NCBI RefSeq assembly: GCF_008087625.1
Contig: NZ_CP042997.1
Span: 3,348,001 to 3,412,000, forward strand
Source: Aquisphaera giovannonii
Lineage (GTDB): Bacteria > Planctomycetota > Planctomycetia > Isosphaerales > Isosphaeraceae
Direction: 5' to 3'
DNA: 64,000 bases
The notes beneath the pieces are model-generated. The model searched no databases. It worked only from the letters and a program-made list of their open reading frames with translations, and was not told where the DNA came from. A program made the translations under genes and the position numbers. How positions within the stretch are numbered: position 1 is the stretch's first letter; the number at the start of each line of letters is the position of its first letter. Below are positions 1,034 through 16,106 of this stretch, piece after piece.

Positions 1034-1104
1034 TGGGGATTGGTGTAACGGTAGCACGACTGACTCTGGATCAGTTAGTCTAGGTTCGAATCCTAGATCC
1101 CCAG
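1034..1104 (+). tRNA. tRNA-Gln (anticodon CTG)
   Basis: A complete cloverleaf can be folded. The acceptor stem TGGGGAT pairs with ATCCCCA and is followed by discriminator G. The anticodon arm is ACTGA-CTCTGGA-TCAGT with CTG at the anticodon, and the T arm is CTAGG-TTCGAAT-CCTAG. A 5' U1-A72 pair is typical of bacterial tRNA-Gln. CCA is not encoded. Bases from 1054 onward are shared with the right end of the mobile element, so the 3' two-thirds of the functional tRNA was supplied by the integrated element. Confidence 0.96.
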
Positions 1105-1106
1105 CT
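1054..1106 (+). repeat. attL: 53-bp direct repeat within tRNA-Gln
   Basis: The sequence from GCACGACTGACTC to CCCCAGCT recurs at 16054-16106 with a single difference (C1087 against G16087). The repeat covers the anticodon arm, T arm and 3' acceptor strand, the usual attachment segment for tyrosine integrases that target tRNA genes. The integrase gene ends 82 bp to the right. Confidence 0.93.
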
Positions 1107-1187: not shown

Positions 1188-2552
1188 TCACGACGACTTC
1201 CGTTGCACTCGCTTGCCTCTGGTCGGTGCAACGGATGGTGCAACGGACGGGGCTGCCGGTGCAACGGACGGGGCTGCCGGTGCAACGGACGGCATGGCTT
1301 CGATTGCTGCCCGCATGTCGGCAACGCGAACGTCCGTGTAGATGTTGCTGGTGAGCTTCGGGTCGGAATGCCTCATGAGGCGCTGGGCAACCGTCAGGGG
1401 GACGCCGGAGGCCGCCAGGAGCGTCCCGAACGTCGTCCGCAGCGAATGCAGGTCCACGCGCCGGCCCCGGTCGTCTTCCAGGGGGATGCCGGCCCGCTTG
1501 CGATCGGCATGGAAACGCCTGATCAGGTCCGCGGGGATGTTGAAGACGGCATCGGCCGGCCGCCTGCCATCCACGCGACGACGAAGCATCGCGATCAGGT
1601 CGGCTCGCAGGGGCAGGATGGCCCCTTGCTTGTTCTTCGTCGTCCCGGCCCGGAGCGACATGCCGGGACTCTCGCCGTCAAGGTCCAGGTCGGCAACCCT
1701 CAAGAGCCGGGCCTCGTTGACGCGCAGGCCGGTCCCCGCGAGGAAGAGATACAGGTCGGCCCGATCCGCCCCGGTCATACGCTCGGCCGGTCGCCCGCCC
1801 TCCACCTTGCCGGCCGACTTTAGGGGCCGCCTCGCCGGCGCCTGCTGGGCGGCTGCCATCAGCTTCCCAAGCTCATCAGGAGTCAGGGCCCGCCGAGGCC
1901 GCCGCGGGTCGGCCTTCTCGCTCGCCTTGGGCAGCCTAGCGAACGGATTGCCGGCCAGCCGCCCAGCCGTGGCGAGCCAGGAGCAGAAGCCGGAGGCCGC
2001 CACACGGTAGGCATTCCGGGATCGGGCGGAGCGTTTCTTGAGGGCCTCGCCGGCTAGCCAAAGCTCCAGCCGATCCCGCTTCAGGTCGGCAAGGGCGGAC
2101 CATCCCAGGGCGTCCCGCAGGCGCTCCAGGTATCCCCTCGTGTTCGTCCGGTGCATCGCGTTGCCGGTCAGCGTCGAAACGTAATCGTCGATGTGCTGGT
2201 CGATGCCGACCCTCCGGGCGGTGTCGGCTCGCCGGTCTTCTTCCGGCGTGACAACCTCGGCGCGTATCCGGTCGGCCCGCTTCTCCAGGTTGGCGAGGAA
2301 GTGCTCGGCCGCGGATTTGTCCTGGCACTTGGTCGGCACAACCTTCACCGTGCCGTCATGGTCCCGATACTTGGCGAAGTAGGTCGATGACTCCTGCCGG
2401 ATGGCCTGCCGTCCGTCCGGAAGCGTCACGACGGGGGCCATGGCCCGCTTGCCCTTGCCGTCCCATCGCGCGACCAGCCGGCCGCCTTGCGTGGAGATCT
2501 TCGCGCCCGCCGGAACGGGCCTCGTGGTCGTCTTCCGGAACACTGATCCCAT
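1188..2552 (-). CDS. int: Tyrosine recombinase / site-specific integrase
   Basis: This 454-residue protein catalyses integration and, with a directionality factor, excision at the tRNA-Gln site. The C-terminal catalytic domain has the full set of residues: Arg277 in GTGLRVNEARLL, Lys near TTKNKQG (306-308), His369/Arg372 in LHSLRTTFG, His395 in MRHSDP and the nucleophile Tyr405 in NIYTD. Residues ~118-205 form the core-binding (SAM-like) domain and the N-terminal ~100 residues an arm-binding-like region. The last 34 residues after the catalytic core are a repetitive PSVAPAA tail, encoded over a 21-bp DNA repeat that looks like integrase binding sites. Orientation and position beside attL fit an element integrase. 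The start ATG at 2552 gives the expected length. Confidence 0.95.
   Translation of the reverse strand: MGSVFRKTTTRPVPAGAKISTQGGRLVARWDGKGKRAMAPVVTLPDGRQAIRQESSTYFAKYRDHDGTVKVVPTKCQDKSAAEHFLANLEKRADRIRAEVVTPEEDRRADTARRVGIDQHIDDYVSTLTGNAMHRTNTRGYLERLRDALGWSALADLKRDRLELWLAGEALKKRSARSRNAYRVAASGFCSWLATAGRLAGNPFARLPKASEKADPRRPRRALTPDELGKLMAAAQQAPARRPLKSAGKVEGGRPAERMTGADRADLYLFLAGTGLRVNEARLLRVADLDLDGESPGMSLRAGTTKNKQGAILPLRADLIAMLRRRVDGRRPADAVFNIPADLIRRFHADRKRAGIPLEDDRGRRVDLHSLRTTFGTLLAASGVPLTVAQRLMRHSDPKLTSNIYTDVRVADMRAAIEAMPSVAPAAPSVAPAAPSVAPSVAPTRGKRVQRKSS
1199..1289. repeat. GTGCAAC repeat cluster near attL (putative integrase arm sites)
   Basis: GGTGCAACGGA occurs at 1225-1235, 1237-1247, 1258-1268 and 1279-1289 (steps of 12, 21 and 21 bp), with an inverted copy at 1199-1208. 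Further copies lie at 2655-2664 and, at the other end, 15983-15991 and 15995-16002. The cluster is inside the 3' end of int. Tandem sites near both att ends are what arm-type integrase sites look like; the assignment is inference. Confidence 0.65.
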
Positions 2553-2782
2553 TGCGTCCTCCGATCGCGGGGCAGGGGATGCCAGCCACCCAATGCGGCG
2601 GGCCGGCCATCATCCTACGCCATGCATGGGATTCGAACAAGATCAGTGCGTCTAGGTGCAACGAACAGGCGCGGGGCGATCGATAGGGGAAAGAGAAGGG
2701 GCCGGGCTAGCGGGGGAGATCCCCACCAACCCGGCCCGGCGAAATTCGAGGGAGGCAGCCGCCCAAGGAGGGGCGGAGCCTA

Positions 2783-3178
2783 TCAACCGTTGATCGAGAG
2801 AGTCAGCCGGTGACTGATGCCGTTGTCCGCGGCCGTGTAAAAGGTGAATTCCGCCCAGCCGAGTTCCCGCGAAGCGTCCATGCTCCCGAACAGAACGTCG
2901 TCCCGACTCTCCAGGAACCGCAAGAGGTCGTTGCGAAGACTCCGATTCAGGTCTAGGTTTTCGCGGGGCCACCCCATCCCGTAATGCGAGCGGAGGCATT
3001 CCCCGTAGTTGCGCGAGATCAGGGATATCTCCTCCGGGGTCAGCAGGGCGGCAAGCTCCTCGATCGAGCGCGGGGGCCGCCCCTCCTCTTGGGTGGCTGC
3101 CGCCGCGGGCTTCGTATAGGCGGGCTTGGTCTGACGCTTCCGGGTTGCCTTGCTCTTGCTGGTCGTCATCGTGGCCAT
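2783..3178 (-). CDS. Hypothetical element protein with basic N-terminus
   Basis: A 131-residue protein I do not recognise. The first ~30 residues are Lys/Arg/Thr-rich and low in complexity (TSKSKATRKRQTK), likely disordered or nucleic-acid binding. An alpha-helical acidic segment follows (SIEELAALLTPEEISLISRNYG), then a C-terminal part with alternating polar and aromatic residues (WAEFTFYTA). No signal peptide or membrane segment. One copy of the dispersed AGCCRCCCA repeat falls inside the coding sequence (3090-3098). It lies upstream of int on the same strand, separated by 230 bp containing two more repeats (2584, 2757). It may be a regulator or a cargo protein. Confidence 0.6.
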   Translation of the reverse strand: MATMTTSKSKATRKRQTKPAYTKPAAAATQEEGRPPRSIEELAALLTPEEISLISRNYGECLRSHYGMGWPRENLDLNRSLRNDLLRFLESRDDVLFGSMDASRELGWAEFTFYTAADNGISHRLTLSING

Positions 3179-3409
3179 GATGCTTCCCCGTCGCCGGGCT
3201 CCATTCGGTTGCGGTCGCAGGAGTCGGACTTGAGCGAACCGAGGGTCACACTACAGGGTTTTAGTCATCTGGTCAACCGGATTACTGAAAGATTCCTCAG
3301 AATCGGCTTTCGGTCGGCTAGAATACATGGTGATGGGACAGGCGTAGGTCGCCGGCCCTAGCCCCAACGTCGGGACGGGATGACCAACCCCCTCGGAGCG
3401 AATTCGACC

Positions 3410-3610
3410 ATGGCACGCCCCAAGAGCAGCCGGAACGATGTGCAGGTCAAGATAGACGCCAACGTGGCGCAGACGGCGAAGATCGTGGCCGCCTACCGTG
3501 ACACAACGGTTGCCGAACTGGTCAGCGAAATACTTCGCCCGATCCTTGAGCAGATGGAGCAAGAGGAAATCGCTAGGCGAGCCGCCGGGACAGCCGCCCA
3601 AGGCGAGTAG
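3410..3610 (+). CDS. Small ribbon-helix-helix-like protein
   Basis: A 66-residue protein beginning MARPKSSRNDVQVKID. The pattern of a short beta strand (VQVKIDANV) followed by two helices (AQTAKIVAAYRD, TVAELVSEILRPILEQ) is that of CopG/Arc-type ribbon-helix-helix DNA-binding proteins. I chose ATG 3410 because GGAG lies 11 bp upstream; an in-frame ATG at 3380 would add ten residues without a better site. It is one of only two genes on the plus strand within the element and points toward the HEPN cassette, convergent with it. A local repressor role is plausible but not shown. Confidence 0.6.
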   Translation: MARPKSSRNDVQVKIDANVAQTAKIVAAYRDTTVAELVSEILRPILEQMEQEEIARRAAGTAAQGE

Positions 3611-3682
3611 CCCAGAGGGATGCCGAGCCGGCCGTTGCTGCCGTACGCGCTGTTGGGCCTTCGGGCGAAGAGTTGCCACGGC

Positions 3683-4126
3683 TCAAACGACGTGCAGCCT
3701 AAGTATGTTGCGGGCGTAATTCTTCATCGCATCAATGGTTGCCGATTTTACAAGTCTATTCATTAACAAGTCATCGAATGCCTCGATAACTTTCCTGGCT
3801 TCTAAGCAGGCGATTTCGGCCTCGCTCAAAGTTTCTGTTGCACTGTCGCCCATGCGGTAGTCGGCGCGTAACCTTCTACTGTGAAGCTGACCCAAAACCC
3901 TCTCCGCGTCCCGAAGGCCATCATCCTTCGAAGACGCCAGGCATTTTCTTAGAGTGCAATGCGCCGCGCCTCCCTCCCCCACGCGAATACCGATTTCGTC
4001 GAGAGTTTTCGTCCCAACATTGAAGGCAGCATAGTATGCACGGCCAATTGTGCTCCTGAATGACGAAGGCGACGCATGATTATTCTTTAAGATGAGGGCG
4101 AGATCGAGGAACTGCCTCGGATCCAC
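3683..4126 (-). CDS. HEPN-domain protein (UPF0332-like), third gene of cargo cassette
   Basis: A 147-residue all-helical protein. RSTIGRAYYAAFN near residues 24-36 matches the 'AYYA.F' hallmark of HEPN domains, and LHSRRLRADYRMGD near 81-94 matches the 'R..ADY' segment of UPF0332-type members; the helix with EARKVIEAFDDL follows. HEPN proteins commonly act as RNases or as partners in toxin-antitoxin, abortive infection and other defence systems. The classical R-x4-6-H ribonuclease motif is not at its usual place; the only candidate is RNILRLH at the extreme C-terminus, so activity is uncertain. The start is GTG 4126 with GGAGG six bases upstream. The gene follows its neighbour by 11 bp and is clearly lower in GC than the element backbone. 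Confidence 0.75.
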   Translation of the reverse strand: MDPRQFLDLALILKNNHASPSSFRSTIGRAYYAAFNVGTKTLDEIGIRVGEGGAAHCTLRKCLASSKDDGLRDAERVLGQLHSRRLRADYRMGDSATETLSEAEIACLEARKVIEAFDDLLMNRLVKSATIDAMKNYARNILRLHVV

Positions 4127-4137
4127 AACAGCCTCCG

Positions 4138-4608
4138 TCAGACGGCATGATATACAACCGCAATATGGTCAAGCTTTTCTTGTTCAATGATTTTTCGCAG
4201 GTGTCCCGAAAGTGCTAGCCCATTTTCTAAGAGCGATTCAGGAGTGCCGATAGCCTTGATGTGGATTGCAAGGTACCCATCCTCGGGCCCCGACTCCTGG
4301 ACAACCTCGTATTCGGGCATTCCGACAAGGTGGAAGTAAGATGGAATGACAGCTTGAACCTTAATGACATCGGCAATGATGTTCATTTTTTCGCAAAATG
4401 CGAATGCTGCTCCTGTCAATCCAGATATGGCGGAACGCGCGATGGGACATGTTGCTATCTCCGACGCCTTCAGGCAAGTTTGTATTGCCTGGGGAAGAAA
4501 GTCTTGAGGAACATACGCGCGGGGACTCATCATTGCTTCAAAGAGAAGAGTCCGCCACGACCCCCCTGACTTGACGGCACGCGCGCTGAAGGCGGAAGCC
4601 AAACTCAT
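4138..4608 (-). CDS. Unknown protein, middle gene of cargo cassette
   Basis: A 156-residue protein with no family I recognise. Its N-terminal half is Ala/Ser-rich and helical with several Cys (TCLKASEIATCPIARSAIS). The C-terminal half looks like a small alpha/beta domain (DGYLAIHIKAIGTPESLLENG, then DHIAVVYHAV). No signal peptide or membrane helix is evident. ATG 4608 follows AGGTGAT directly and lies immediately after the TGA of the DUF6941 gene; GTG 4614 would overlap that stop. Either way the two genes are translationally coupled. Low GC and rare-codon-rich composition are shared with both neighbours, so the three genes probably moved together. Confidence 0.65.
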   Translation of the reverse strand: MSLASAFSARAVKSGGSWRTLLFEAMMSPRAYVPQDFLPQAIQTCLKASEIATCPIARSAISGLTGAAFAFCEKMNIIADVIKVQAVIPSYFHLVGMPEYEVVQESGPEDGYLAIHIKAIGTPESLLENGLALSGHLRKIIEQEKLDHIAVVYHAV

Positions 4609-4610
4609 TA

Positions 4611-5054
4611 TCACCTCGGCTGGTTAGAGTTGAGGCCGCCCGCAACCGAATCGACACTTTCGATTTTTATCGGCAATCGGGCTGCCTCTTCGTCGTTTAT
4701 CCGCACGATTAGCCAGTGAATGCCCCAGGCTTGGAATAGGCAATTCTGGATCAGAACTATCAATCCTCCGGCCGCCGGAAGATTCGGATCGCGCGGGGAG
4801 CCGGCCGTTAGGCTTCCGCTAGTCCGGGCGTAGTCTAAAGATTTGCCATCCGGATCTATGATCGACACATCGAAATTAATTTGATTGTTATACTCAACTT
4901 CGTCATATTGTATTTTCCCCACAACGTAGAAGCTGGGGACCAGAATGGGCAAGGAGGCCGTAAGGAAGGCATCAAAGTCGGCCCCCATTATGTACAATTG
5001 GCCAGTAGGACCTATCTCGGCATAGGTGGCCAGCAGAAGAAACTTTACCTTCAT
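4611..5054 (-). CDS. DUF6941-family-like protein, first gene of cargo cassette
   Basis: A 147-residue protein opening MKVKFLLLATYAEIGPTGQLYIMGA, which resembles the start of DUF6941 proteins ('MKVK..L.DYA..s.dGKLnilG.fd'). It continues as a beta-rich domain with a Gly/Pro loop (GKSLDYARTSGSLTAG) and a C-terminal strand IHWLIVRINDEEAARLPI. The function of the family is unknown to me. The start is ATG 5054, preceded by GGGGGAATGC; the open frame extends much further upstream, but that part is the reverse complement of non-coding and tape-measure sequence with unlike composition. A good sigma-70-type promoter sits 46 bp upstream, making this the first gene of a DUF6941-unknown-HEPN operon. Confidence 0.7.
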   Translation of the reverse strand: MKVKFLLLATYAEIGPTGQLYIMGADFDAFLTASLPILVPSFYVVGKIQYDEVEYNNQINFDVSIIDPDGKSLDYARTSGSLTAGSPRDPNLPAAGGLIVLIQNCLFQAWGIHWLIVRINDEEAARLPIKIESVDSVAGGLNSNQPR

Positions 5055-5099
5055 GCATTCCCCCAGGCATGCCCCCAGCCTTCTACTTTGGCGCGAAGA

Positions 5100-5128
5100 A
5101 TTATAGACTCTCAGACGCTTGAGGTCAG
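5100..5128 (-). promoter_or_regulatory. Sigma-70-type promoter of the three-gene cargo cassette
   Basis: Read on the minus strand: CTGACC (-35, 5123-5128), a 17-bp spacer, then a perfect TATAAT (-10, 5100-5105). Transcription would start near 5093, giving a leader of about 40 nt before ATG 5054. Its presence shows that the cassette is expressed independently of the phage-type genes upstream. Confidence 0.6.
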
Positions 5129-5380
5129 CCGGATTTCCAAGAGTTGGCCTAGATAGGCGTAAAGCAAACTCAATTCTGGTATTTTGAGGCGAAAATGGGC
5201 CGTCGAATGCACAAGCCTCCAAGCCCACCGCAGGCCATGCTTCCCTTTGCCATTCGAAGTTCGGATCGAGGCCAGAAGGCCAGACGCCCCCTCCCGGTCT
5301 CCATATAACGTACCCAATGCGCCGACCGCCTTCCAGCCGCCGCAGGCCCGCAGTGCTCCGCAGGCCCGCAGGCTCGCCGG
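5129..5380. other. Non-coding junction between cargo cassette and tape-measure gene
   Basis: No supportable gene. Near the tape-measure stop, CGCAGGCCCGCAG occurs twice (about 5339-5351 and 5357-5369). GC content drops from the tape-measure side toward the cassette side, so this is the likely insertion boundary of the cassette. Confidence 0.4.
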
Positions 5381-6964
5381 CTAGACCATGGCGTCCAGGG
5401 TGATCAGGTCGGCCGGCTGGGAGAGGTTCGCGGCCAGCTTTTGCACGGCCTGCGCCAGCTTGTTCACGCCGCTGGCGGTCGCGTTCGTGTTCTTGGCGAT
5501 CTGATCCTGCGTCTTGCCGGAGGGGTCGCCGAACTTCGACCGCAGGGTGATCGAGGCCGCCTCGGCGGAGCCGGCCAGTGCCGCCGCGGAGAAGGCTTTC
5601 CCCTCGCGGGGGGCCTTCGCCGCCTTGTCCGCCTTCTCTTTGCCGCCCGCGATCCCAAGTTTTGAGAAATCGACTCCCGCGGGCCTGGCGAGATCCTTGC
5701 GAAGCGCGTCGATCTTGGCCCGCGCGTCGTCGAAAGCCTTGTTCACGGCATTGGATGCGTCGGGCGCGAGCGACATTTTCTCGAATTCCTTCCGCTGGGC
5801 ATCGGCCGTGGCCTTGAAGGAATCCGCCCATCGCTTCATCTCGGGATCGCCCATGCCGCCGAGGCGACGGCCGGCGTTGGGGTCCGCGAACGCGCCCAGA
5901 TTCTTCCCGTCGAAGACGCGCGAGAAATCGCCCATCGCCATCGAGATCAGGGGCTTGAGGGTCGATAGCCGGTCGATGATCTCGCCCACGCCTTCGGTGA
6001 TCGAGGCCTGCGCCAGCTTCCAGTCACGCGCGATGGTCTGGAATGCGTCCGCCACGCCGCCGGCCGTCCTTTGCAGCCACCCCATGGACTCGGCCGCCTG
6101 CCCCGCGCCGCCCACGGTCCCAGCCGCCCAATCGAGGGCCGCCGCCTTGTTCCCCTGCCACGCGAGGTTCAACGCCTCGATGGCCACGTTGATTTCACCC
6201 AGGCCCTTGCCGACGATGGGCAGCAACGTCTCGCCGATCGAGGCCGCGAGGTTGCCGACCCTCCCCGTGGCCTCCCGGCTGGCGTTGGCGAAGCCATCGG
6301 CCGTCTTGGCTAGGTCGCCCTGCGCGTCGGATAGCCCCTTCATGATGATCGCGGCCCGCGCGGCAACCTTCGCTTGGTTGGATAGCTCCTGGCCGCTCTT
6401 GACCAGCCCCATGGCGAGGGCTTGGGCCTTCACCATGTCCTCGTTCATCAGAATGCCGAGATCCTTGAGCGGCTCGCTCTCGCCGGACAGGCCCGACCGG
6501 AGCTTGCCGAACGCCTGATCGAACGGCAGGTTGAAAAAGGAGCTAGCATCGGCCGAGAGCTTGACGAACTGGCTGGCGAGGTCGGCCGCATCGCCCTGGC
6601 TGAAGCCGGCCCCCTTGAACAGCCCACCCAATCGACCGGACGCATCGAGAAACTCACTCTTCGACACGCCGAACGCCTCGGCCATCTTGTTCGAGTCGGC
6701 GATGATCTTCGCGGACGCGCCTCCAAAGATGGCCTGCGTCTTGTTCATATTCTCATTCAAATCGCTCGCGGCAGCGATCATCTTGCCGAAGCCGATGGCC
6801 GAGGCCGCGCCGAACGCCGCCGTGAAGGCCCCGGCGACGAGCGTGCCGGTCCCGGTGGCACTCTTCTCGAAGCTCTGGAGCGACCGCTGGGCGGAGGCGA
6901 GGCCGGATTTGAATTTCTCCGTGCTGGCGGTCATGGCGATCGAGATCTTTCCAACTAAGGCCAT
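5381..6964 (-). CDS. Phage tail tape-measure protein (short)
   Basis: A 527-residue protein. Residues ~1-45 (MALVGKISIAMTAS..KFKSGLASAQRSL) and the following glycine/alanine-rich hydrophobic stretch lead into the canonical tape-measure core: LNENMNKTQAIFGGAS, AEAFGVSKSEFLDASGRLG, then LRSGLSGESEPLKDLGILM. These are diagnostic of TMPs, which set tail length and thread through the tail tube. ATG 6964 has AAGGAA eight bases upstream, so the 27-residue extension from an earlier ATG was not used. The C-terminal ~130 residues are Lys/Ala-rich helices. The length is short for a siphophage; no tail-tube, chaperone or baseplate genes are adjacent, which is unusual. Confidence 0.85.
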   Translation of the reverse strand: MALVGKISIAMTASTEKFKSGLASAQRSLQSFEKSATGTGTLVAGAFTAAFGAASAIGFGKMIAAASDLNENMNKTQAIFGGASAKIIADSNKMAEAFGVSKSEFLDASGRLGGLFKGAGFSQGDAADLASQFVKLSADASSFFNLPFDQAFGKLRSGLSGESEPLKDLGILMNEDMVKAQALAMGLVKSGQELSNQAKVAARAAIIMKGLSDAQGDLAKTADGFANASREATGRVGNLAASIGETLLPIVGKGLGEINVAIEALNLAWQGNKAAALDWAAGTVGGAGQAAESMGWLQRTAGGVADAFQTIARDWKLAQASITEGVGEIIDRLSTLKPLISMAMGDFSRVFDGKNLGAFADPNAGRRLGGMGDPEMKRWADSFKATADAQRKEFEKMSLAPDASNAVNKAFDDARAKIDALRKDLARPAGVDFSKLGIAGGKEKADKAAKAPREGKAFSAAALAGSAEAASITLRSKFGDPSGKTQDQIAKNTNATASGVNKLAQAVQKLAANLSQPADLITLDAMV

Positions 6965-7035
6965 CGCTGATTTCCTTGATATGTTCGAGTGCAAATGAAC
7001 GAGGCTTTGTTTCATCCCCCGGCAGACGGAAGGCC

Positions 7036-7074
7036 AGCCACCCAAGGGCAGGGCTGCCCCTCGATTGGGCGGCT
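7036..7074. repeat. Paired AGCCRCCCA hairpin repeats, intergenic
   Basis: AGCCACCCA (7036-7044) faces TGGGCGGCT (7066-7074) between the tape-measure gene and the gene at 7090, with an inner GGGCAG/CTGCCC stem. The whole stretch can fold as one long hairpin. It is one of 19 sites in the element: 1846, 1957, 2584, 2757, 3090, 3592, 7036, 7066, 7706, 7724, 8888, 9347, 9358, 10098, 11439, 13687, 14092, 14832 and 15360 (start of the 9-mer on either strand; 7706 and 11439 differ by one base). Confidence 0.75.
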
Positions 7075-7089
7075 GGCGTTGGCCGGCGG

Positions 7090-7659
7090 TCAGGCATAGG
7101 TCGGGAAGATGTCGCCGGCGCGGGCCCGCGAGCTACGCAGGGCCGACAGATATCGCTCTCCCGCCTGCGTGAGCCGCGCCCCGGTGGCCAGCTTCACGAA
7201 GCCGCTCTTCAGTTCCTGGCACGCCCGCTCCTCGGGGAGGTCGAGCGCCACCCCTTTCCCGAAATGCGTGCTATTGAACATCAGGTGATCGCCGGTGACC
7301 GTCACCTTAATGCGAGGCTGGCCGTTGAACGGATCGGGAGGTGGCGTCGGCTTGACCGGGGGCCTCCTATCGGGAAGCGGCTCGGTCAACTGCGACGGGT
7401 CCACGATCTCGGCTGCGCCGTCCCTATGGAGATCGAGGGCCCGGAACTGGCTCGCGATGCCCTCCTGTCCGGCTACCAGGATGTGCCGATGGGCAACCAC
7501 GCCGTCGCGGAGCGCCTTGATTCTGATCGTGTACACAGCCCGCCCGGCCTCCGCCCACTGTTCGGCCAGCGTTTCGGGCACGGTCACAAGCTCGCCGGCC
7601 TCGCGAAGCTCGCCGTTGTGGATGAGGGCCTTGGTCAGTTTTACGGTCTCGATCGCCAT
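7090..7659 (-). CDS. Hypothetical phage-type protein between capsid and tape measure
   Basis: A 189-residue protein of unknown function. It opens METVKLTK-like (MAIETVKLTKALIHNGELRE) with a beta-rich first domain (VTVPETLAEQWAEAGRAV) resembling short phage head-completion or accessory proteins. A proline-rich linker (DRRPPVKPTPPPDPF) separates a second beta-rich domain with TVTGDHLMFNSTHFGKG. No membrane segment. Its place between major capsid and tape measure is where head-tail connector genes normally lie, so a structural role is likely; that is inference from position only. Hairpin repeats occupy the gaps on both sides. Confidence 0.6.
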   Translation of the reverse strand: MAIETVKLTKALIHNGELREAGELVTVPETLAEQWAEAGRAVYTIRIKALRDGVVAHRHILVAGQEGIASQFRALDLHRDGAAEIVDPSQLTEPLPDRRPPVKPTPPPDPFNGQPRIKVTVTGDHLMFNSTHFGKGVALDLPEERACQELKSGFVKLATGARLTQAGERYLSALRSSRARAGDIFPTYA

Positions 7660-7705
7660 GTGAAAACTCTCCGATGCTTCGGTTGGGAGGGAAGGCGGGG
7701 GAGGC

Positions 7706-7732
7706 GGCCGCCCAATGCGGGGCTGGGCGGCT
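7706..7732. repeat. Paired AGCCRCCCA-family hairpin repeat, intergenic
   Basis: CCGCCCA at 7708-7714 pairs with TGGGCGG at 7724-7730 around ATGCGGGGC. It lies in the 91-bp gap between the capsid stop and the next gene. The left member is a one-base variant (GGCCGCCCA). No T-tract follows, so it is not a classical intrinsic terminator. Confidence 0.65.
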
Positions 7733-7750
7733 GCCGGTCGGGGCTGGGGC

Positions 7751-8827
7751 TCAGGAAGTCACGATGTCGGTCGCCGCGCAGAACGCCGCGGGCTGGCGAA
7801 CCAGGATGTCCACGTCCTGAAAGAGGTTCACGCGCACGACTCCGAGTGTCGAAGCCTTGTACGGGTCAACCAATACGTCCGCAACGCTGAAAAGCTGGAT
7901 TACCAGGTTCGACCAGTCTGCGTATACGATCGAACCGAGATTTGTCCCGGTGCCCTTTGTCGTGTTGTCCGGCATGTTGCCAGTTGACCAGGCTGGCTTG
8001 CCCAAGACGCGATCCGCATCAGACCAGAGCCAGGCCCCGGAGCCCGCGGACGAACCATCGATCGAACGCATCTTCGATCTCGTCGCAACGCTGGCCACCC
8101 AGCCGAGCGAGGCCGAAGCCGCGGCATCTCCGTTCGCGGCGGCGACCGCCTTCTCCATGGCGACGAGAGTTGCGCGGGTCGGCACTCCGCCGTTCGTGCC
8201 AAGGGCCACGCTGCCAATGCCCGAAGTCTGAAGAATGCCCGTCGGCTGGCCGCTCGATCCGCTGCCATTGAGGGCCGCCCGATCGATCTCGACGGCCGCC
8301 CCGGTGATCAGGTCGTCAATCACCATCCGTTCGACCGCCGGGCCGCCTTGAGACAGCATGCGGGTCGTGATATCGACGTACGCGGCCACGGTCCGGGGGC
8401 TAGCCACTACGGCCGCAGTCGTCGGATTGGTCGAACTGCCCGGGGCCGCAGCCTCATTCACCCAAGAGGTTTGAGCCGCGGTCAATTTGCGGGGCAGCTG
8501 GACTTGCCCGTAATTCGTCGTCTCGCCCGATCGGAGGTCGCCGAGGAACGCGCCGGCCAGGCCGCAGACCAGCTTAGGCCGCAGGATGTCCGCGGTCCCG
8601 GCCAGATACTTATAGATCGCCCCGGAACCGGCCGTCGTGTCGAGCGCTCGCTCTTCAAATGAGCCGCCCAGCAACGCCGGGATCGGCACCAGGAATCCCT
8701 GGGGGGAGATGCCGAGAGATCGAGCAAGAGCCTGGCTGGCCTCGCCCTCAAATCCCCCGGGATTGATCCTCTTGCCGTCCACACACCGCTTGATCGCACT
8801 GAATAGGGAATACTGATGATTGGACAT
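7751..8827 (-). CDS. Major capsid protein, HK97 fold
   Basis: A 358-residue protein with the N-terminal arm and body typical of HK97-family capsids. Features include LGISPQGFLVPIPALL, the loop region WVNEAAAPGSS, then ISTRMLSQGGPAVERMVIDDLI as the long spine-helix region, AALNGSGSSGQPTGILQTSGI (the conserved 'L.G.G...P.GIL' motif), and a C-terminal VYADWSNLVIQLFSVADVLVDPY and NLFQDVDILVRQPAAF. I see no long scaffold (delta) domain and no adjacent prohead protease. ATG 8827 is preceded by AGGAATCGCG; a 20-residue upstream extension was rejected. It forms the head shell in the cytoplasm of induced cells, if the element is still active. Confidence 0.88.
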   Translation of the reverse strand: MSNHQYSLFSAIKRCVDGKRINPGGFEGEASQALARSLGISPQGFLVPIPALLGGSFEERALDTTAGSGAIYKYLAGTADILRPKLVCGLAGAFLGDLRSGETTNYGQVQLPRKLTAAQTSWVNEAAAPGSSTNPTTAAVVASPRTVAAYVDITTRMLSQGGPAVERMVIDDLITGAAVEIDRAALNGSGSSGQPTGILQTSGIGSVALGTNGGVPTRATLVAMEKAVAAANGDAAASASLGWVASVATRSKMRSIDGSSAGSGAWLWSDADRVLGKPAWSTGNMPDNTTKGTGTNLGSIVYADWSNLVIQLFSVADVLVDPYKASTLGVVRVNLFQDVDILVRQPAAFCAATDIVTS

Positions 8828-8897
8828 CGCGATTCCTATGGAAAGGAAGGGAAACGAAGGTTGATTGACAGGGATGCCGCGCGACATTGGGCGGCTG

Positions 8898-9305
8898 TCA
8901 GATCCCGGCCTCGGAAATCTCGATCAGGAGGAGCAAAGCCTCGCGGCTCGGCAAATGTCCCGCCCTACGCTGGCGGTTGATCAGATCCCGGGCCGCCACG
9001 GCCACGGCCCGGACGTCGGCCGCGTTGTCACGGGATTCGCAGAGCCGTTCAAGGCAGCCCCGGATGAGCCGGACACTGGCATCCTTCAGCGGGGCGGATA
9101 GGTCGATCTTGCCGATGTCCACGCGATCGGCCTGCCGGTCTTCGGCGGTTGGCTCCGGCGCCATGGCGGGGGCGGACTTGCCCTGCTGGGAGGCCGTGCG
9201 GGCGAGCCCTTCACGGATCATCCGGTCTGTATCCACGCCGCGATGGCCACGGCCGCCGAGATCCGCGAATTCCGGCTCTCCGGCCGTCGTCTTCGTCGTC
9301 TTCAT
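8898..9305 (-). CDS. Hypothetical element protein upstream of the capsid gene
   Basis: A 135-residue protein. The N-terminal half is polar and probably disordered (MKTTKTTAGEPEF..RGHRG). The C-terminal half is helical: LSAPLKDASVRLIRGCLERLCESRDNAADVRAVAVAARDLI then REALLLLIEISEAGI. ATG 9305 has AGGA eight bases upstream, preferred to a start 88 codons earlier that runs through the palindromic repeat at 9347. The helical architecture and position just before the capsid gene would fit a small terminase-like or scaffold-like protein, but I see no diagnostic motif. Confidence 0.6.
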   Translation of the reverse strand: MKTTKTTAGEPEFADLGGRGHRGVDTDRMIREGLARTASQQGKSAPAMAPEPTAEDRQADRVDIGKIDLSAPLKDASVRLIRGCLERLCESRDNAADVRAVAVAARDLINRQRRAGHLPSREALLLLIEISEAGI

Positions 9306-9346
9306 CGTCGTTCCTTTCCGGCTCCATCGCCGGGTTCGTGCTTTCC

Positions 9347-9366
9347 AGCCACCCAATTGGGCGGCT
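9347..9366. repeat. Near-perfect palindrome formed by two AGCCRCCCA repeats
   Basis: AGCCACCCAA and TTGGGCGGCT meet head to head; with flanking bases the symmetry extends over 24 bp with one mismatch (A/G). It lies 42 bp upstream of the start of the gene at 8898-9305. The geometry resembles a dimeric-protein operator or a tight RNA hairpin. Confidence 0.65.
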
Positions 9367-9376
9367 GGCGGGTCGT

Positions 9377-9604
9377 CTACTTGGACAGCCGCGAGGCAAT
9401 TCGCCGGGCGATCTCCCGCGCTAGCCGGCCGACGAGCGAGGCCATGACTCTGATTTCGAGTCTCACGAGGCCGAGACCGCTCATTCGCTGGCCGCAGCTT
9501 GCGTTTCCGGGCCGCAGATCGCATGGCGATGGCATGTAAGCTCCGGGCTGGCATGGGATTGCGTCGCATTCGATGATGTACATGCCAGATTCAGACGTTT
9601 TCAT
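9377..9604 (-). CDS. Possible small protein of about 75 residues
   Basis: An open frame from ATG 9604 (MKTSESGMYIIECDAIP) to a basic C-terminal helix MASLVGRLAREIARRIASRLSK. No clear ribosome-binding site precedes the ATG. The basic amphipathic end could also be a 22-residue peptide from the internal ATG. The evidence is weak: it is the only reading that fills the 427-bp stretch 9306-9732, which otherwise holds the palindrome at 9347 and nothing else I can identify. Confidence 0.25.
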   Translation of the reverse strand: MKTSESGMYIIECDAIPCQPGAYMPSPCDLRPGNASCGQRMSGLGLVRLEIRVMASLVGRLAREIARRIASRLSK

Positions 9605-9732
9605 CAACGAATGCTTAAGTTCTATTCGGCAAGAAACGCGCAAGACTGCGGGTCGGTAAACAGGTCCGGCCGCGCAGCAAACGGAGCCGCCCTACCCATC
9701 CATGAACTCCGATGGGTCGAGTCGGCCGGGGT

Positions 9733-9957
9733 TCACGCCACGCGTCCCTGTGTGGCCGCCTCGATGGCGCGGGCTACGTCCGAGAAACGAATTACCGGCC
9801 GACAGCCCGGGAGCTTGCGGACAGAGACTTGGCGCAATTGGATCAGGGCCTTGATGGCCTTCGTCGGCACGCCGTAGCGTCGGCTCGCCTCGTTGATCGA
9901 CCCGTGCGGATCATCGGCCGGGATCGCTGCGGCTAGCTTGCAGGATGCAGTGCTCAT
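9733..9957 (-). CDS. Small helix-turn-helix protein (excisionase/HTH_17-like)
   Basis: A 74-residue protein. INEASRRYGVPTKAIKALIQL is a helix-turn-helix of the MerR/excisionase type, followed by a wing-like RKLPGCRPVIRFSDVARAI. Proteins of this size in integrated elements act as recombination directionality factors or transcription regulators. It heads the minus-strand run leading to the capsid gene and is preceded by a promoter-like sequence, which suits a regulator of the morphogenesis block or an excisionase. The element encodes a second, larger protein of this class at 15292-15624. Confidence 0.65.
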   Translation of the reverse strand: MSTASCKLAAAIPADDPHGSINEASRRYGVPTKAIKALIQLRQVSVRKLPGCRPVIRFSDVARAIEAATQGRVA

Positions 9958-9993
9958 GGTTTTCTGGCTCGCATGGATCTGGGATGCATACCC

Positions 9994-10022
9994 TCTATAG
10001 TCAATTAGCTACATGATGCGAA
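9994..10022 (-). promoter_or_regulatory. Promoter-like sequence upstream of the small HTH gene
   Basis: On the minus strand: TTCGCA (10017-10022), 17-bp spacer, TATAGA (9994-9999), 37 bp before the ATG at 9957. The region 9985-10060 is the most AT-rich in this part of the element. Each hexamer matches four of six consensus positions. Confidence 0.4.
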
Positions 10023-10189
10023 GTTAGGATATGAAATCGTGGAATCATTCGCGTTTTTTCGAGTTTTGCCCAAGATTGACGCCAGCCGCCGCATGCCAGC
10101 CGCCCAATGAGTGGGGTGGTGTCTCCGGCCAACCGGGCGATATGATCGAGCGGGGATGACCCATCTCCCTGAAGTCGAGAGGAGGCAGG

Positions 10190-10576
10190 ATGCCTGAAGT
10201 TCTCGCGAAGGCCGCCGTCATGCTCGGCGTGGCCGCCGGCGCGATCTTCATCGCCGGCTCTTTCATGTGCGAGTCTGAACCTGTCAGGGGCCCCACTGGC
10301 GGGCCCGGCTTGCGTGACGAGTTCGAGCTTGAGTCGCTCAAGGCGGCCGCGAAACCGCTGGTTGAACGCCTCTACCAAATTCGGCGAAGCGAGGGCTACT
10401 TCCCGGCCTCGCTGGCATACCTCGGTTTGAAGAGGCCGCAGAGCCGATTCGGCCGCTGGCGGTATCACGTCCACGACGGAGGGCAAGCGTTTGCACTCAC
10501 CAACGGCGACTACATGAAGAACGGATTTGTGCTCTGCTGGTCCAGCGAGCATGGCGATTGGTGGGTTGACCGATAG
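10190..10576 (+). CDS. Small membrane-anchored protein, opposite strand to the element operons
   Basis: A 128-residue protein with one N-terminal hydrophobic segment (AKAAVMLGVAAGAIFIAGSF, residues ~6-25) and a soluble remainder containing SEGYFPASLAYLGLKRPQSR and ending GFVLCWSSEHGDWWVDR. The segment could be an uncleaved anchor; no proper lipobox is present. A strong GAGGAGG lies seven bases before ATG 10190. It is one of only two plus-strand genes in the element, so it is transcribed separately, perhaps in the integrated state like lysogenic-conversion or superinfection-exclusion genes. That role is a guess from orientation and topology. Confidence 0.65.
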   Translation: MPEVLAKAAVMLGVAAGAIFIAGSFMCESEPVRGPTGGPGLRDEFELESLKAAAKPLVERLYQIRRSEGYFPASLAYLGLKRPQSRFGRWRYHVHDGGQAFALTNGDYMKNGFVLCWSSEHGDWWVDR

Positions 10577-10707
10577 TTTGGGCCGGCTCAATCGACATCG
10601 CCAGGAAGGCACCTAGAACGTCGCAGGGGTGGCGTCCGGCCGGGGACGATAGATCCCTCGATCATCCGGCCGGGGGCGCCATGGCGGGCCGCCTGGAAGT
10701 TCCCCGG

Positions 10708-11004
10708 CTAGGCGATGGGGCCGGCCCCAAGGCAGCCGAGGCAAACGCGGTTCCGGCCCGGGTCGCCGCCGCAGATCACGCAAGGGCCCGGCAACCTGGC
10801 CGGCCTCTTTGCGGCGGGCGTGATCGGCTCGAAAATCGGCCGCCGGCCTCGCTTGGCCTTCGGCTGGGGGATGTCGGCCGCCTGGCGTACCCGGGGCCGA
10901 GGCGGCTCTAGGGGGGCTAGGCCCTCGCTCGCCCGGCACCACGGCCGGTTGCCCTCGATCAGAACCAGGACTTCCCGCCCGTCGTCGCCAATCCGGCAGC
11001 CCAT
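10708..11004 (-). CDS. Small protein with a C-terminal zinc-ribbon-like Cys cluster
   Basis: A 98-residue protein. The N-terminus is MGCRIGDDGREVLVLIEGNR, the middle is Pro/Arg/Lys-rich and likely disordered (PKAKRGRRPIFEP), and the C-terminus has CVICGG..CLGC, two CxxC-type pairs that could bind zinc. ATG 11004 has GGAG eight bases upstream. It follows another two-Cys-pair protein by 56 bp on the same strand. Both sit between the replication module and the structural genes, where phages often keep small regulators. No family recognised. Confidence 0.6.
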   Translation of the reverse strand: MGCRIGDDGREVLVLIEGNRPWCRASEGLAPLEPPRPRVRQAADIPQPKAKRGRRPIFEPITPAAKRPARLPGPCVICGGDPGRNRVCLGCLGAGPIA

Positions 11005-11060
11005 AGAAGCATCTCCGTCGATGGTGGAACGTACGATACAAGGCTCCGCCGGTCGCCATG

Positions 11061-11357
11061 CTAGCCCGCGATACCTAGCCGGCGCTTCCGCATGGCCAAC
11101 CTCCGCGATCTCGCGAACGGGACGGCCGAGGCAGCCATGCGGCGGCAGTCGTCGCAGATGATGACCGAGATAGGCCCCTCGCCGGGTTCGCCCTGGACCA
11201 GCCAAAGCGATACGGGCGGGAACGCCTCGCAGGAGTTGCAAACAAACTCGGCCCCATGGGGCTGGTCGGCCGCCTCGGGCCTCGCGGGGGCAGCCGGCCG
11301 GAAGGATCGCTCGCGGGCCGATGGGAAGCCCCTTCGCGGGGCGGCTGAGGTGGCCAT
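11061..11357 (-). CDS. Small Cys-pair protein
   Basis: A 98-residue protein with an Arg/Pro/Ala-rich N-terminal third, then FVCNSCEAFPPVSLWLVQGEP and VIICDDCRRMAASA. The CNSC and CDDC pairs, about 30 residues apart, are a likely zinc-binding site. A short basic tail ends the protein (MRKRRLGIAG). ATG 11357 is preceded by GGAGATTTCACC. It could bind nucleic acid or protein; no family identified. Confidence 0.6.
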   Translation of the reverse strand: MATSAAPRRGFPSARERSFRPAAPARPEAADQPHGAEFVCNSCEAFPPVSLWLVQGEPGEGPISVIICDDCRRMAASAVPFARSRRLAMRKRRLGIAG

Positions 11358-11459
11358 GGTGAAATCTCCGGGATAGAGGCGCGGAGAGCACAGAGGGGAC
11401 GCCGGGGGCTTTCGCGGGCAAGGCGGCGGGGCGGGGACAGCTACCCAAGGCAGGGCAGG

Positions 11460-11915
11460 CTAGGCCCGTCGCTCGATGCGGCCGGGTCGCTTCGGCCACG
11501 GACTGGATACGCCTAGGTCGGCCGGGCGGAACGCCGTCACGCGGATACCCAGGCCGGGCCGCCAAGACACGCTGTCGATGGAGGTCGCGAAGCCGAGGGC
11601 TTGGAGCCGGGTCAGGATTTCCACATCGCGCGGCCAGAGCGAACAGGCATGCCCCACGATCGCCAGGGGCTCGCCGTCGCGGCCGTAGACTTCCATTTGA
11701 TCCTGACCGAACAGGTTCTCATCGAGGCCGCCAGGTGCGATCATCGCGGCCAGGTCGCGGATATCGTCCCGATCGGCCGCGCTCGACAGGCGGAGGAACC
11801 GCGAGACGTTGCGCGGAGTGGGCTGATACTCGCGAAGCCGGAATTGGGACAGGAAGGCCGCCTTCCGGGCTCGGGGCGAGGTCGCGTTTCTCGGTCGCGT
11901 GGCTGCGGTGGCCAT
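11460..11915 (-). CDS. Hypothetical protein next to the origin-like repeat
   Basis: A 151-residue protein of unknown function. The N-terminus is basic (MATAATRPRNATSPRARKAAF), and the body is mixed alpha/beta with DLAAMIAPGGLDENLFGQDQMEVYGRDGEPLAIVGHA. The start ATG 11915 was chosen over one eight codons upstream because it begins the common MAT-type N-terminus seen in the neighbouring small genes. It is the first gene after the origin-like repeat, reading away from it on the minus strand. A replication accessory role is possible but unsupported by any motif. Confidence 0.55.
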   Translation of the reverse strand: MATAATRPRNATSPRARKAAFLSQFRLREYQPTPRNVSRFLRLSSAADRDDIRDLAAMIAPGGLDENLFGQDQMEVYGRDGEPLAIVGHACSLWPRDVEILTRLQALGFATSIDSVSWRPGLGIRVTAFRPADLGVSSPWPKRPGRIERRA

Positions 11916-11976
11916 GGGGCTGGGGCTCCAGTGAAGCATGAAGGAGAGGGGCCGCGGACTAGCTCTCGGGGCGGGA

Positions 11977-12111
11977 AGTGAGAGTTAGAGAGTTATTGAG
12001 AGTTATTCCCAACCCCCCCCGGACGTATTCATATCCATTATGATATGATTATGGGAAATTTCCCGCGCGGGGGAGTTAGAGATAACTCTCAATAACTCTC
12101 TAACTCTCACT
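11977..12111. other. Origin-like structure: perfect 30-bp inverted repeat built of GAGAGTTA iterons
   Basis: The arms 11977-12006 and 12082-12111 are exact reverse complements. Each arm contains three copies of GAGAGTTA or its near variants, and a further partial GAGTTAGAG abuts the right arm. The 75-bp spacer is AT-rich for this genome, contains CATATC/GATATG inverted copies and the 12-bp palindrome GGGAAATTTCCC, and ends in a GC block. It lies immediately downstream of the primase-helicase gene. Iterons plus an AT-rich unwinding segment beside a primase-helicase match the arrangement of P4-type and PICI origins. The assignment is inference. Confidence 0.7.
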
Positions 12112-12129
12112 CGGGAGGGTCGGCCGCTG

Positions 12130-14949: not shown

Positions 14950-15048
14950 ACCTAGTCGTCTGTTCTCGGTTTGCCTGTTCGTCGGCCCCGCGGCGTTCCC
15001 CCGTCCCCCGCGCGGCCGTCTTTCGGTTCTTTATAAATGCCCGATTTA

Positions 15049-15237
15049 TCAGCCCGGGAGAGGCGCAATCCTTCCCGTCATGAGCATGCGAAATACCTCC
15101 GAGCGGGAGACCCCGCGTTCGGCCGCGATCTCATCGGCCCTTCGCGCTTGCTCGGGCTTGATCGCCGCGCTGACAACGATGTGGGGCTCCTGGGTCCGGG
15201 GCTTGAATCCGCTGTTTTTCCTCGTGTCGCCGCTCAT
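15049..15237 (-). CDS. Small ribbon-helix-helix-type protein
   Basis: A 62-residue protein. HIVVSAAIKPEQARRADEIAAERGVSRSEVFRMLMTG is a beta strand plus two helices typical of CopG/Arc-like DNA-binding proteins, including the 'G.SRSE..R.l' second helix. It lies between the AlpA-like gene and the primase gene on the same strand and could control replication or copy number, as CopG-type proteins do on plasmids. Confidence 0.65.
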   Translation of the reverse strand: MSGDTRKNSGFKPRTQEPHIVVSAAIKPEQARRADEIAAERGVSRSEVFRMLMTGRIAPLPG

Positions 15238-15291
15238 AGGAAACCTCGTCTGCGTGGTGGAAAGCGATTCATCTGGTTCATCGGGCGAGGC

Positions 15292-15624
15292 TCAGAACCC
15301 CGCGGCGGCAAGCTCTCGCTCCGCACCCTCGTGCGCCTTCCGTGGCCGCCGCCCTCGTTTGGGCGGCTGTCCCGTCGTCCCGGCGGATGCCTGCGGCGTG
15401 GTCGCCCGGCTCGGCCGGTCGCGGTTTCTCGGGCAGCCTGCGGCGATCCACTGGTCGATGGCCTCGCGGCTCCACCGAACAGTCCGCCACCCGATACGGA
15501 GCGGGGCGGGCAACATCCCGGCATCGGCCAGGCGCCAGACTTGACGGGTCGAGATGCTTAGGCGTGCCGCGAGATCCTTGACGGTGAGTACGTCCGGCCT
15601 GGGTGCCAATTCAGCCGTCGCCAT
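15292..15624 (-). CDS. AlpA/excisionase-like helix-turn-helix regulator
   Basis: A 110-residue protein. LTVKDLAARLSISTRQVWRL is a MerR-type helix-turn-helix, followed by the wing LPAPLRIGWRTVRWSREAIDQWI, the standard layout of HTH_17/AlpA proteins. The C-terminal ~45 residues are basic and probably disordered. AlpA of P4-type elements activates integrase expression and excision; position next to attR, at the head of the replication operon, supports that kind of role. GGGGGAGG precedes ATG 15624 and a small inverted repeat lies 30 bp upstream. Confidence 0.8.
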   Translation of the reverse strand: MATAELAPRPDVLTVKDLAARLSISTRQVWRLADAGMLPAPLRIGWRTVRWSREAIDQWIAAGCPRNRDRPSRATTPQASAGTTGQPPKRGRRPRKAHEGAERELAAAGF

Positions 15625-16053: not shown

Positions 16054-16106
16054 GCACGACTGACTCTGGATCAGTTAGTCTAGGTTGGAATCCTAGATCC
16101 CCAGCT
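16054..16106 (+). repeat. attR: displaced 3' end of tRNA-Gln
   Basis: Identical to 1054-1106 except G at 16087, which changes the T-loop TTCGA to TTGGA. The 5' half of a tRNA is absent, so this copy is not a functional gene. Confidence 0.93.

What the first reader, a model, noticed from the sequence alone, without database searches (positions are those of the whole stretch)
3683..5128. Low-GC three-gene cargo operon: DUF6941 - unknown - HEPN
Three genes with stop/start overlap or 11-bp spacing, strong ribosome sites and their own CTGACC-17-TATAAT promoter sit between the tape measure and the integrase-side genes. GC content is visibly lower than in both the element and the host. HEPN proteins are recurrent in toxin-antitoxin and anti-phage systems; accessory genes at this position of satellites are often defence modules. 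The combination with DUF6941 and the middle protein is not one I recognise, so it may be an undescribed system.
Basis: partly seen in the sequence, partly recalled or inferred. Interest (0 to 1): 0.78.

Follow-up and report, generated by a model that had tools for sequence, protein, structure and literature searches.

The report
HEPN ribonuclease toxin with exchangeable partners
A small mobile DNA element in a planctomycete bacterium carries a three-gene cassette that looks like a self-poisoning immune switch: a probable RNA-cutting toxin (HEPN), a small undescribed partner protein found beside this toxin in other bacteria, plasmids and a phage, and a first gene that differs from copy to copy and may sense the trigger.

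Summary
In detail: three minus-strand genes at 3683-5054 (DUF6941, an unknown protein 'X', HEPN), tightly coupled, G+C 0.515, lie in a 15.0-kb element integrated in tRNA-Gln. The reading is partly right. The trio was seen nowhere else: DUF6941 is a widespread gene of this phylum (172 of 343 genomes), not seen in an operon with HEPN outside the window. X-HEPN is a recurrent pair: 37 of 42 strong HEPN relatives carry X directly upstream, among them genes of several phyla, three plasmids and a Vibrio phage's defence hotspot. X stands where related HEPNs carry the MNT antitoxin; the two groups are split by a 99/94-supported branch. The HEPN lacks Rx4-6H but keeps residues of the alternative active site reported for the retron-Kva2 tRNase. 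The gene before X varies or is absent, or X is fused to a methyltransferase. Best explanation: a HEPN ribonuclease restrained through adaptor X, with an exchangeable sensor in first position. No function is shown. No description of X was found in the searches made. New variant of a known kind (HEPN toxin/abortive-infection modules).

The parts
3683..4126 (-). HEPN protein (147 aa), predicted ribonuclease effector; A10, R24, R29, Y31, H56, R85, D89, Y90 invariant in the 15-row alignment
4138..4614 (-). X (158 aa from GTG; 156 aa from ATG at 4608): adaptor/antitoxin-like partner; conserved C-terminal domain about residues 60-156 (a-bb-aa-b), poorly modelled N-terminal helical extension
4611..5054 (-). 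DUF6941 protein (147 aa), immunoglobulin-like beta sandwich; proposed sensor/bait in the exchangeable first-gene position
5100..5128 (-). sigma-70-like promoter candidate CTGACC-17-TATAAT (not beyond chance by count)
2843..5340 (.). variable slot of the element: flanks match a second copy of the element in the same genome, content differs
1057..1105 (+). attachment-site repeat, left, within tRNA-Gln (1034-1105)
16057..16105 (+). attachment-site repeat, right (one mismatch in the 3' pattern)
1188..2552 (-). tyrosine integrase of the carrier element

Best explanation
The cassette is a toxin-antitoxin-like abortive-infection module carried as cargo of a phage-like mobile element. The HEPN protein is a dimeric ribonuclease (probably cutting tRNA) that uses an alternative active site built from H56 and R85 with Y31/Y32. 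X binds it through its conserved C-terminal domain and keeps it inactive, taking the place that the MNT antitoxin has in related operons. The N-terminal extension of X couples the pair to the first gene product, here the DUF6941 beta-sandwich protein, which senses or is disturbed by an invader and so releases the HEPN. Shown by sequence: the gene order, the frequent X-HEPN pairing, the X/MNT exclusivity in the loci read, the conserved residues, the variable first gene. Inferred: ribonuclease activity, dimer, inhibition by X, sensing by DUF6941, anti-phage outcome.
For: X directly upstream of HEPN in 37 of 42 HEPN genes (40 loci, duplicates removed) with profile E < 1e-18 and in 2 of 28 weaker ones; 8 of those 28 have an MNT there instead. 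Iterated X profile against 3575 ORFs: 47 hits (40 without duplicate places), 45 directly upstream of a HEPN, the other 2 just upstream of broken HEPNs. Window X against the profile built without it: E 4.8e-6. Tree of 70 HEPNs: X- and MNT-partnered ones separate on one branch (99/94), 1 change against a shuffled mean of 7.6, 0 of 500 shuffles as low. HEPN profile matches the Retron-Kva2 HEPN, PDB 36ht_I, E 7.3e-5, whose H64, R122 and Y40-42 are needed for defence (preprint PMC13405049, abstract and passages). First gene of a recognised or recurrent family right before X: TIGR04255 in 3 loci, the ~220-aa family in 5 plus a sixth by eye, DUF6941 here; X as C-terminal part of an N6-methyltransferase in 2. 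Context: P2-type gpA-gpQ defence hotspot in a Vibrio phage, next to restriction-modification genes in 2 loci, 3 plasmids, variable slot in the window's element.
Against: DUF6941 was seen in an operon with X-HEPN only here; as a family it is common, mostly one match per genome, so it may be a bystander. Many X-HEPN loci have no recognisable third gene. The X profile was trained on most of the loci in which it was then counted. Of 23 HEPN rows with neither X nor MNT, 13 lie on the X side of the tree, so X is not constant there. No catalytic test; R85 as counterpart of R122 is inferred (the alignment ends after H64). No close relative of the whole operon was found, so selection on it cannot be measured. 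TIGR04255 occurs mostly away from HEPN (10 of 10 loci read).
Confidence: 0.5

Rival explanations
1. X-HEPN is a two-gene toxin-antitoxin pair that stabilises the element (addiction); DUF6941 is an unrelated gene captured next to it and merely co-transcribed.
For: Many X-HEPN loci lack a recognisable first gene; DUF6941 is widespread and was not found in an operon with HEPN elsewhere; several pairs are on plasmids or a phage.
Against: DUF6941 and X overlap or are 2 bp apart and share the low G+C; other loci have a dedicated gene at the same place, and there, as here, the X domain begins further from the start of the protein (residue 49-139).
Confidence: 0.3
2. It is a diverged HEPN-MNT (type VII) toxin-antitoxin pair, X being a degenerate nucleotidyltransferase.
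For: X holds the operon position that MNT has in related HEPNs.
Against: No MNT motif in X (1 of 38 X proteins matches a loose pattern); no nucleotidyltransferase appears among the listed fold matches of X, whose order is a-bb-aa-b (absence from these lists proves nothing); the HEPN has D where RX4HXY has H.
Confidence: 0.05
3. HEPN is not a nuclease but a binding protein, and the operon is a regulator of the element or of its helper phage.
For: The canonical Rx4-6H motif is absent at its site; non-catalytic HEPNs are proposed in PMC3710099 (passages).
Against: An alternative H is invariant in all 15 aligned HEPNs, and PMC3710099 proposes and PMC13405049 supports catalysis by such a site (passages).
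Confidence: 0.1

Closest known systems
Retron type IX (Retron-Kva2) HEPN effector
   Same: Sequence-profile match of the HEPN; no canonical motif; conserved Y-Y, H and R; effector held inactive in a complex and released by a phage trigger (preprint PMC13405049, abstract and passages).
   Different: No reverse transcriptase or winged-helix partner among the window proteins scanned; the partner is X.
HEPN-MNT (type VII) toxin-antitoxin pairs
   Same: Two adjacent small genes with a HEPN-T protein second; X sits where MNT sits.
   Different: X carries no MNT motif; separate side of the HEPN tree.
HEPN-T family typified by AF0298 (PF05168; UPF0332)
   Same: D in place of the catalytic H, alternative upstream H, R kept (PMC3710099, passages; PDB 2hsb E 0.01); clustering with restriction-modification genes is noted there.
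   Different: No partner of X type in the passages read.
PD-T4-1 (PADLOC PDLC04021)
   Same: Positions 306-380 of its 383-position profile match the X of L037, E 0.0012.
   Different: Only this X of those scanned matches, weakly; PMC10952713 lists PD-T4-1 under PD-(D/E)XK nucleases (one passage).
P2-like phage defence hotspot (gpA-gpQ)
   Same: X-HEPN of Vibrio phage PQ189350 lies between portal and replication gene A.
   Different: That particular pair is untested as far as seen.

Membership tests
HEPN superfamily, HEPN-T (PF05168) | Homology to the family | tested here: met
   Two relatives pass PF05168's cut-off of 22 (29.1 and 24.9 bits), a third is just below (20.8); window HEPN matches the relatives' profile built without it (E 2.6e-24). 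The window protein alone has no Pfam hit.
HEPN superfamily, HEPN-T (PF05168) | Canonical Rx4-6H active-site motif | tested here: not met
   R85-x3-D89-Y90 at the motif site, in 15 of 15 aligned rows; R...H spacings elsewhere in some rows are not conserved.
HEPN with alternative active site (AF0298/AbiV/retron IX type) | Conserved upstream H plus conserved R | tested here: met
   H56 and R85 invariant in 15 of 15 rows; the H column aligns with Kva2 H64. R85 = R122 is inferred.
HEPN-MNT type VII toxin-antitoxin | MNT partner with GSx10DxD | tested here: not met
   Motif scan of 38 X proteins: 1 loose match; an MNT partner was found by pattern in 8 other HEPN loci.
Retron type IX | Reverse transcriptase and winged-helix protein in the operon | tested here: not met
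   None among the three operon proteins and the ten other window proteins scanned; the remaining ORFs of the element were not scanned.
Known or candidate systems in PADLOC-DB 2.0.0 | Profile matches to the three proteins | tested here: inconclusive
   DUF6941 and X: none; HEPN: PDC-M05B at E 0.006.
Anti-phage defence system | Protection against phage | not testable with these tools
   Needs an experiment.
Phage satellite (PICI-like) | Integrase, AlpA, primase, att repeats, no full phage gene set | tested here: inconclusive
   Integrase, capsid, AlpA-like HTH and tRNA-Gln repeats found; the 939-aa protein at 12130-14949 has no Pfam match; terminase and portal were not searched for.

The most novel reading that the evidence does not exclude
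X-HEPN is a general, undescribed immune chassis: a HEPN ribonuclease with adaptor X onto which evolution plugs different sensors (beta-sandwich baits such as DUF6941, TIGR04255 and a ~220-aa family, TPR-like repeats, DNA methyltransferases). In the window the sensor is a captured copy of a protein common in the host's phylum, that is, a decoy of a cellular target that invaders attack.
Probability: 0.33. Interest if true: 0.8.

Novelty: new variant of a known kind. Interest (0 to 1): 0.6.

Why it matters
If true, it adds a partner family to HEPN toxins beside MNT, joins HEPN-T toxins to the alternative-site ribonuclease of type IX retrons, and offers a natural series of sensors on one effector chassis, so that what each first gene senses can be tested by swapping. 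It also gives DUF6941 and TIGR04255 a first testable role in some loci.

Tried and rejected
DUF6941-X-HEPN as a fixed trio: rejected. No X or HEPN within the fetched flanks (about 1.5 kb a side) of 29 DUF6941 loci. Among the HEPN places listed for 343 genomes, apart from the window, two share a contig with a listed DUF6941 match: G217:C1, 1.2 Mb apart, and G263:C92, where an MNT-HEPN pair runs divergently from DUF6941. Limits: the DUF6941 listing was cut, and the HEPN search scored at most 11 candidates per genome in that mode.

TIGR04255 as a usual partner in this phylum: not found. 58 of 343 genomes have it, none of the listed places near a listed HEPN; 10 of 10 loci read lack X and HEPN. 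The three TIGR04255-X-HEPN loci come from other phyla.

A weaker HEPN relative of the first search, L042, has no X; it is among the 28 weak rows.

Common descent of the ~220-aa first-gene family and TIGR04255: hhalign P 0.026, not claimed.

Single-protein searches with the window's X and HEPN (viral contigs, plasmids) and DUF6941 (viral contigs, plasmids, phages) found nothing; X and HEPN of the window were not run alone against phages. X in 343 genomes as a single query: the window itself plus three weak chance-like hits.

The low-G+C protein in the second element copy as Lit/U49 protease: no Pfam or PADLOC match to such a family.

X as a KH-type RNA binder: the order of elements fits KH type II (recalled) and the top second-look matches are mitoribosomal uS3 chains (Z 7.3, rmsd 3.1, 81 aligned), but this Z is within what unrelated folds reach; not claimed. 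DUF6941 matched many beta-sandwich proteins about equally.

Literature (listings only unless said): DUF6941, TIGR04255 and UPF0332 in no paper of the library; four combined searches listed no paper that I recognised as describing X-HEPN; 'HEPN domain-containing protein' with 'planctomycet' gave none. HEPN passages of DefensePredictor and of PMC9122126 and PMC9519451 describe no X.

Full report
What is there. The window starts in a 15.0-kb integrated element. ARAGORN finds tRNA-Gln at 1034-1105, and two patterns taken from it recur exactly 15,000 bases further, at 16057-16080 and 16083-16105, with no match in shuffles. Between these repeats lie an integrase at 1188-2552, the cassette, a tape-measure-like gene at 5381-7045, a capsid gene at 7751-8887 and an AlpA-like gene at 15292-15624. 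The cassette is 4611-5054 (DUF6941), 4138-4614 (X) and 3683-4126 (HEPN), all on the minus strand. Its G+C (0.515) is far below the element (0.659 over 5381-15624) and the host part of the window (0.709), also at third codon positions (0.51-0.60 against 0.76 in the capsid and 0.82 in the integrase gene). The sigma-70-like site is present but not beyond chance.

The slot is variable. The same genome holds a second copy of the element's capsid gene at 98% identity. In that region (L078), window 5340-9382 matches at 92% and window 2700-2843 at 86%, while the DNA between them does not match. There the second copy has a 297-aa low-G+C gene (0.495) with an HELRH motif (my reading) and a DDE transposase. 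HEPN and DUF6941 gave one match each in the genome. So the cassette is exchangeable cargo.

X-HEPN is the recurrent unit. In 343 genomes of the phylum, single-sequence searches gave 18 with HEPN matches at E <= 0.01 and only four with X matches, one of them the window and three weak and chance-like. Reading the DNA around the genuine HEPN relatives showed, in 14 of 15 loci (not in L042), a small gene directly upstream whose C-terminal part aligns with that of the window's X. A profile of X, iterated, hit 47 of 3575 ORFs from the loci held then (40 without duplicate places); 45 lie directly upstream of a HEPN and the remaining two just upstream of broken HEPN genes. The 29 DUF6941 loci, in the same ORF set, gave none. 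The window's X matches the profile built without it at E 4.8e-6. Among 70 HEPN genes that cover at least 85 profile positions, duplicates removed, 37 of 42 with E < 1e-18 (in 40 loci) have X; the five without are L070 (X at E 0.055), two copies in L065 (an upstream 143-aa gene that the profile does not recognise), L079, and L094, which lies at the end of its contig. Of the 28 weaker HEPNs 2 have X. The X profile had been trained on most of these loci, some loci are near-copies, and fragments were dropped before the count.

X takes the place of MNT. Eight of the 28 weaker HEPNs have an MNT nucleotidyltransferase directly upstream (pattern GS...[SD]D[ILYF]D, which matches 10 of 2557 ORFs). In a maximum-likelihood tree of the 70 HEPNs the 39 X-partnered and 8 MNT-partnered rows need one change, on a branch with 99/94 support, against a shuffled mean of 7.6 (0 of 500 as low). 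Of the 23 rows with neither, 13 lie among the X-partnered ones and 10 form a deep branch of their own; upstream of three of these ten (L133, L137, L143) is another small protein.

Where it occurs. Named genome loci with X by profile come from Planctomycetota, Nitrospirota, Thermodesulfobacteriota, Myxococcota, Chloroflexota, Bipolaricaulota, KSB1 and Cyanobacteriota (Planktothrix). Others are two Gloeothece plasmids and a Thermus plasmid and Vibrio phage PQ189350. In that phage the pair lies between the portal gene and replication gene A, the gpA-gpQ site that PMC9122126 (passages) describes as a hotspot of anti-phage systems. L061 is followed by a type III methyltransferase, L071 is preceded by a type IIG enzyme and a protein like PDC-M55C and HEC-05, and in L060 and L062 X is the C-terminal part of a ~900-aa methyltransferase. 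The HEPNs of Klebsiella phage MN013086 and of three viral contigs have upstream proteins that the X profile does not recognise; the phage's and two of the contigs' show weak TPR matches below the curated cut-offs. In the window's order 13 of 45 genomes have a HEPN match at E <= 1e-3, not all with X.

The first gene varies. Directly before X lie a TIGR04255 protein in L071 and L073 (E 2.1e-39, 3.8e-34) and in L086 (as annotated); a ~220-aa family with 18 invariant columns in L061, L107, L108, L110 and L112, with a sixth likely member in L162 (by eye); DUF6941 in the window. Many loci have no recognisable one. In these nine loci (three, five and the window) the X domain begins at residue 49-139 of its protein; in 18 of 24 other unfused X proteins it begins at residue 28 or before, the exceptions being L068 (two), L082, L105 (one of two), L111 and L117. 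L116, with a 310-aa gene of no known family before X (residue 50), is left out of both. Start codons are uncertain, so this is a tendency only.

DUF6941 elsewhere. 172 of 343 genomes have it, mostly once; in 29 loci read there is no X or HEPN nearby, and no neighbour recurs in more than four of them. It was not found in phage, plasmid or viral collections with the window's protein. So in the cassette it is unusual, either a captured sensor or a bystander.

Structures. DUF6941 is modelled at mean pLDDT 90 as an all-beta sandwich that resembles many immunoglobulin-like domains about equally. X is modelled at block means of 88-98 over residues 71-156 with the order a-bb-aa-b, and poorly before residue 60. 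No solved structure stands out (best Foldseek E 0.012; best second-look Z 7.3).

Mechanism. The HEPN lacks the H of Rx4-6H: 15 of 15 aligned rows have R-x3-D-Y at that site. PMC3710099 (passages) notes that HEPN-T proteins with D in place of H keep another H that could serve catalysis. Our profile best matches two solved chains named only 'HEPN domain-containing protein' (9xbd, 9xbc; E 1.8e-7, 2.4e-6) and then the Retron-Kva2 HEPN (E 7.3e-5), with our H56 and Y31/Y32 on its H64 and Y41/Y42. The preprint PMC13405049 (abstract and passages) reports that H64, R122 and Y40-42 are needed for defence and that the complex leads to tRNA degradation once a phage protein triggers it. R85 as the counterpart of R122 is my inference. 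By analogy with MNT and with the retron, X should hold the HEPN inactive, and the first gene, or the domain fused to X, should carry the trigger. None of this is shown by experiment.

Assessment. I rate it a new variant of a known kind: a HEPN toxin module with a partner family for which I found no description (listings) and an exchangeable first gene.

Noticed in passing
L078:4876-5766 (-): The second copy of the element carries in the same slot a low-G+C 297-aa protein with an HELRH motif and no significant Pfam or PADLOC match, beside a DDE transposase; perhaps another defence-type cargo.
   Followed up: partly
L060:3226-5994 and L062:3310-5994: About 900-aa N6-methyltransferases with the X domain at the C-terminus, 7 bp before a HEPN gene: a possible restriction-type sensor fused to the adaptor.
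   Followed up: partly
L082:4211-5405 (Vibrio phage PQ189350): X-HEPN pair, annotated as hypothetical, in the P2-type gpA-gpQ defence hotspot.
   Followed up: partly
L133, L137, L143: A deep HEPN branch of 10 rows; three loci read have a different small upstream partner, neither X by profile nor MNT.
   Followed up: no
Genome G166 (L039, L055, L057-L059): Six HEPN copies of this family, each with its own X: a local expansion.
   Followed up: partly
window 3380-3610 (+) and 2783-3178 (-): A ribbon-helix-helix-like protein (sub-threshold Pfam) convergent with the cassette, and a 131-aa protein of unknown family, lie at the slot's edge.
   Followed up: no
L037:1126-1596 (-): This X matches positions 306-380 of the 383-position PADLOC PD-T4-1 profile (E 0.0012), a hint that the X domain occurs in that defence protein.
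   Followed up: no
L161 (G263:C92): An MNT-HEPN pair divergent from a DUF6941 gene: the only other listed closeness of DUF6941 and a HEPN, not an operon.
   Followed up: yes
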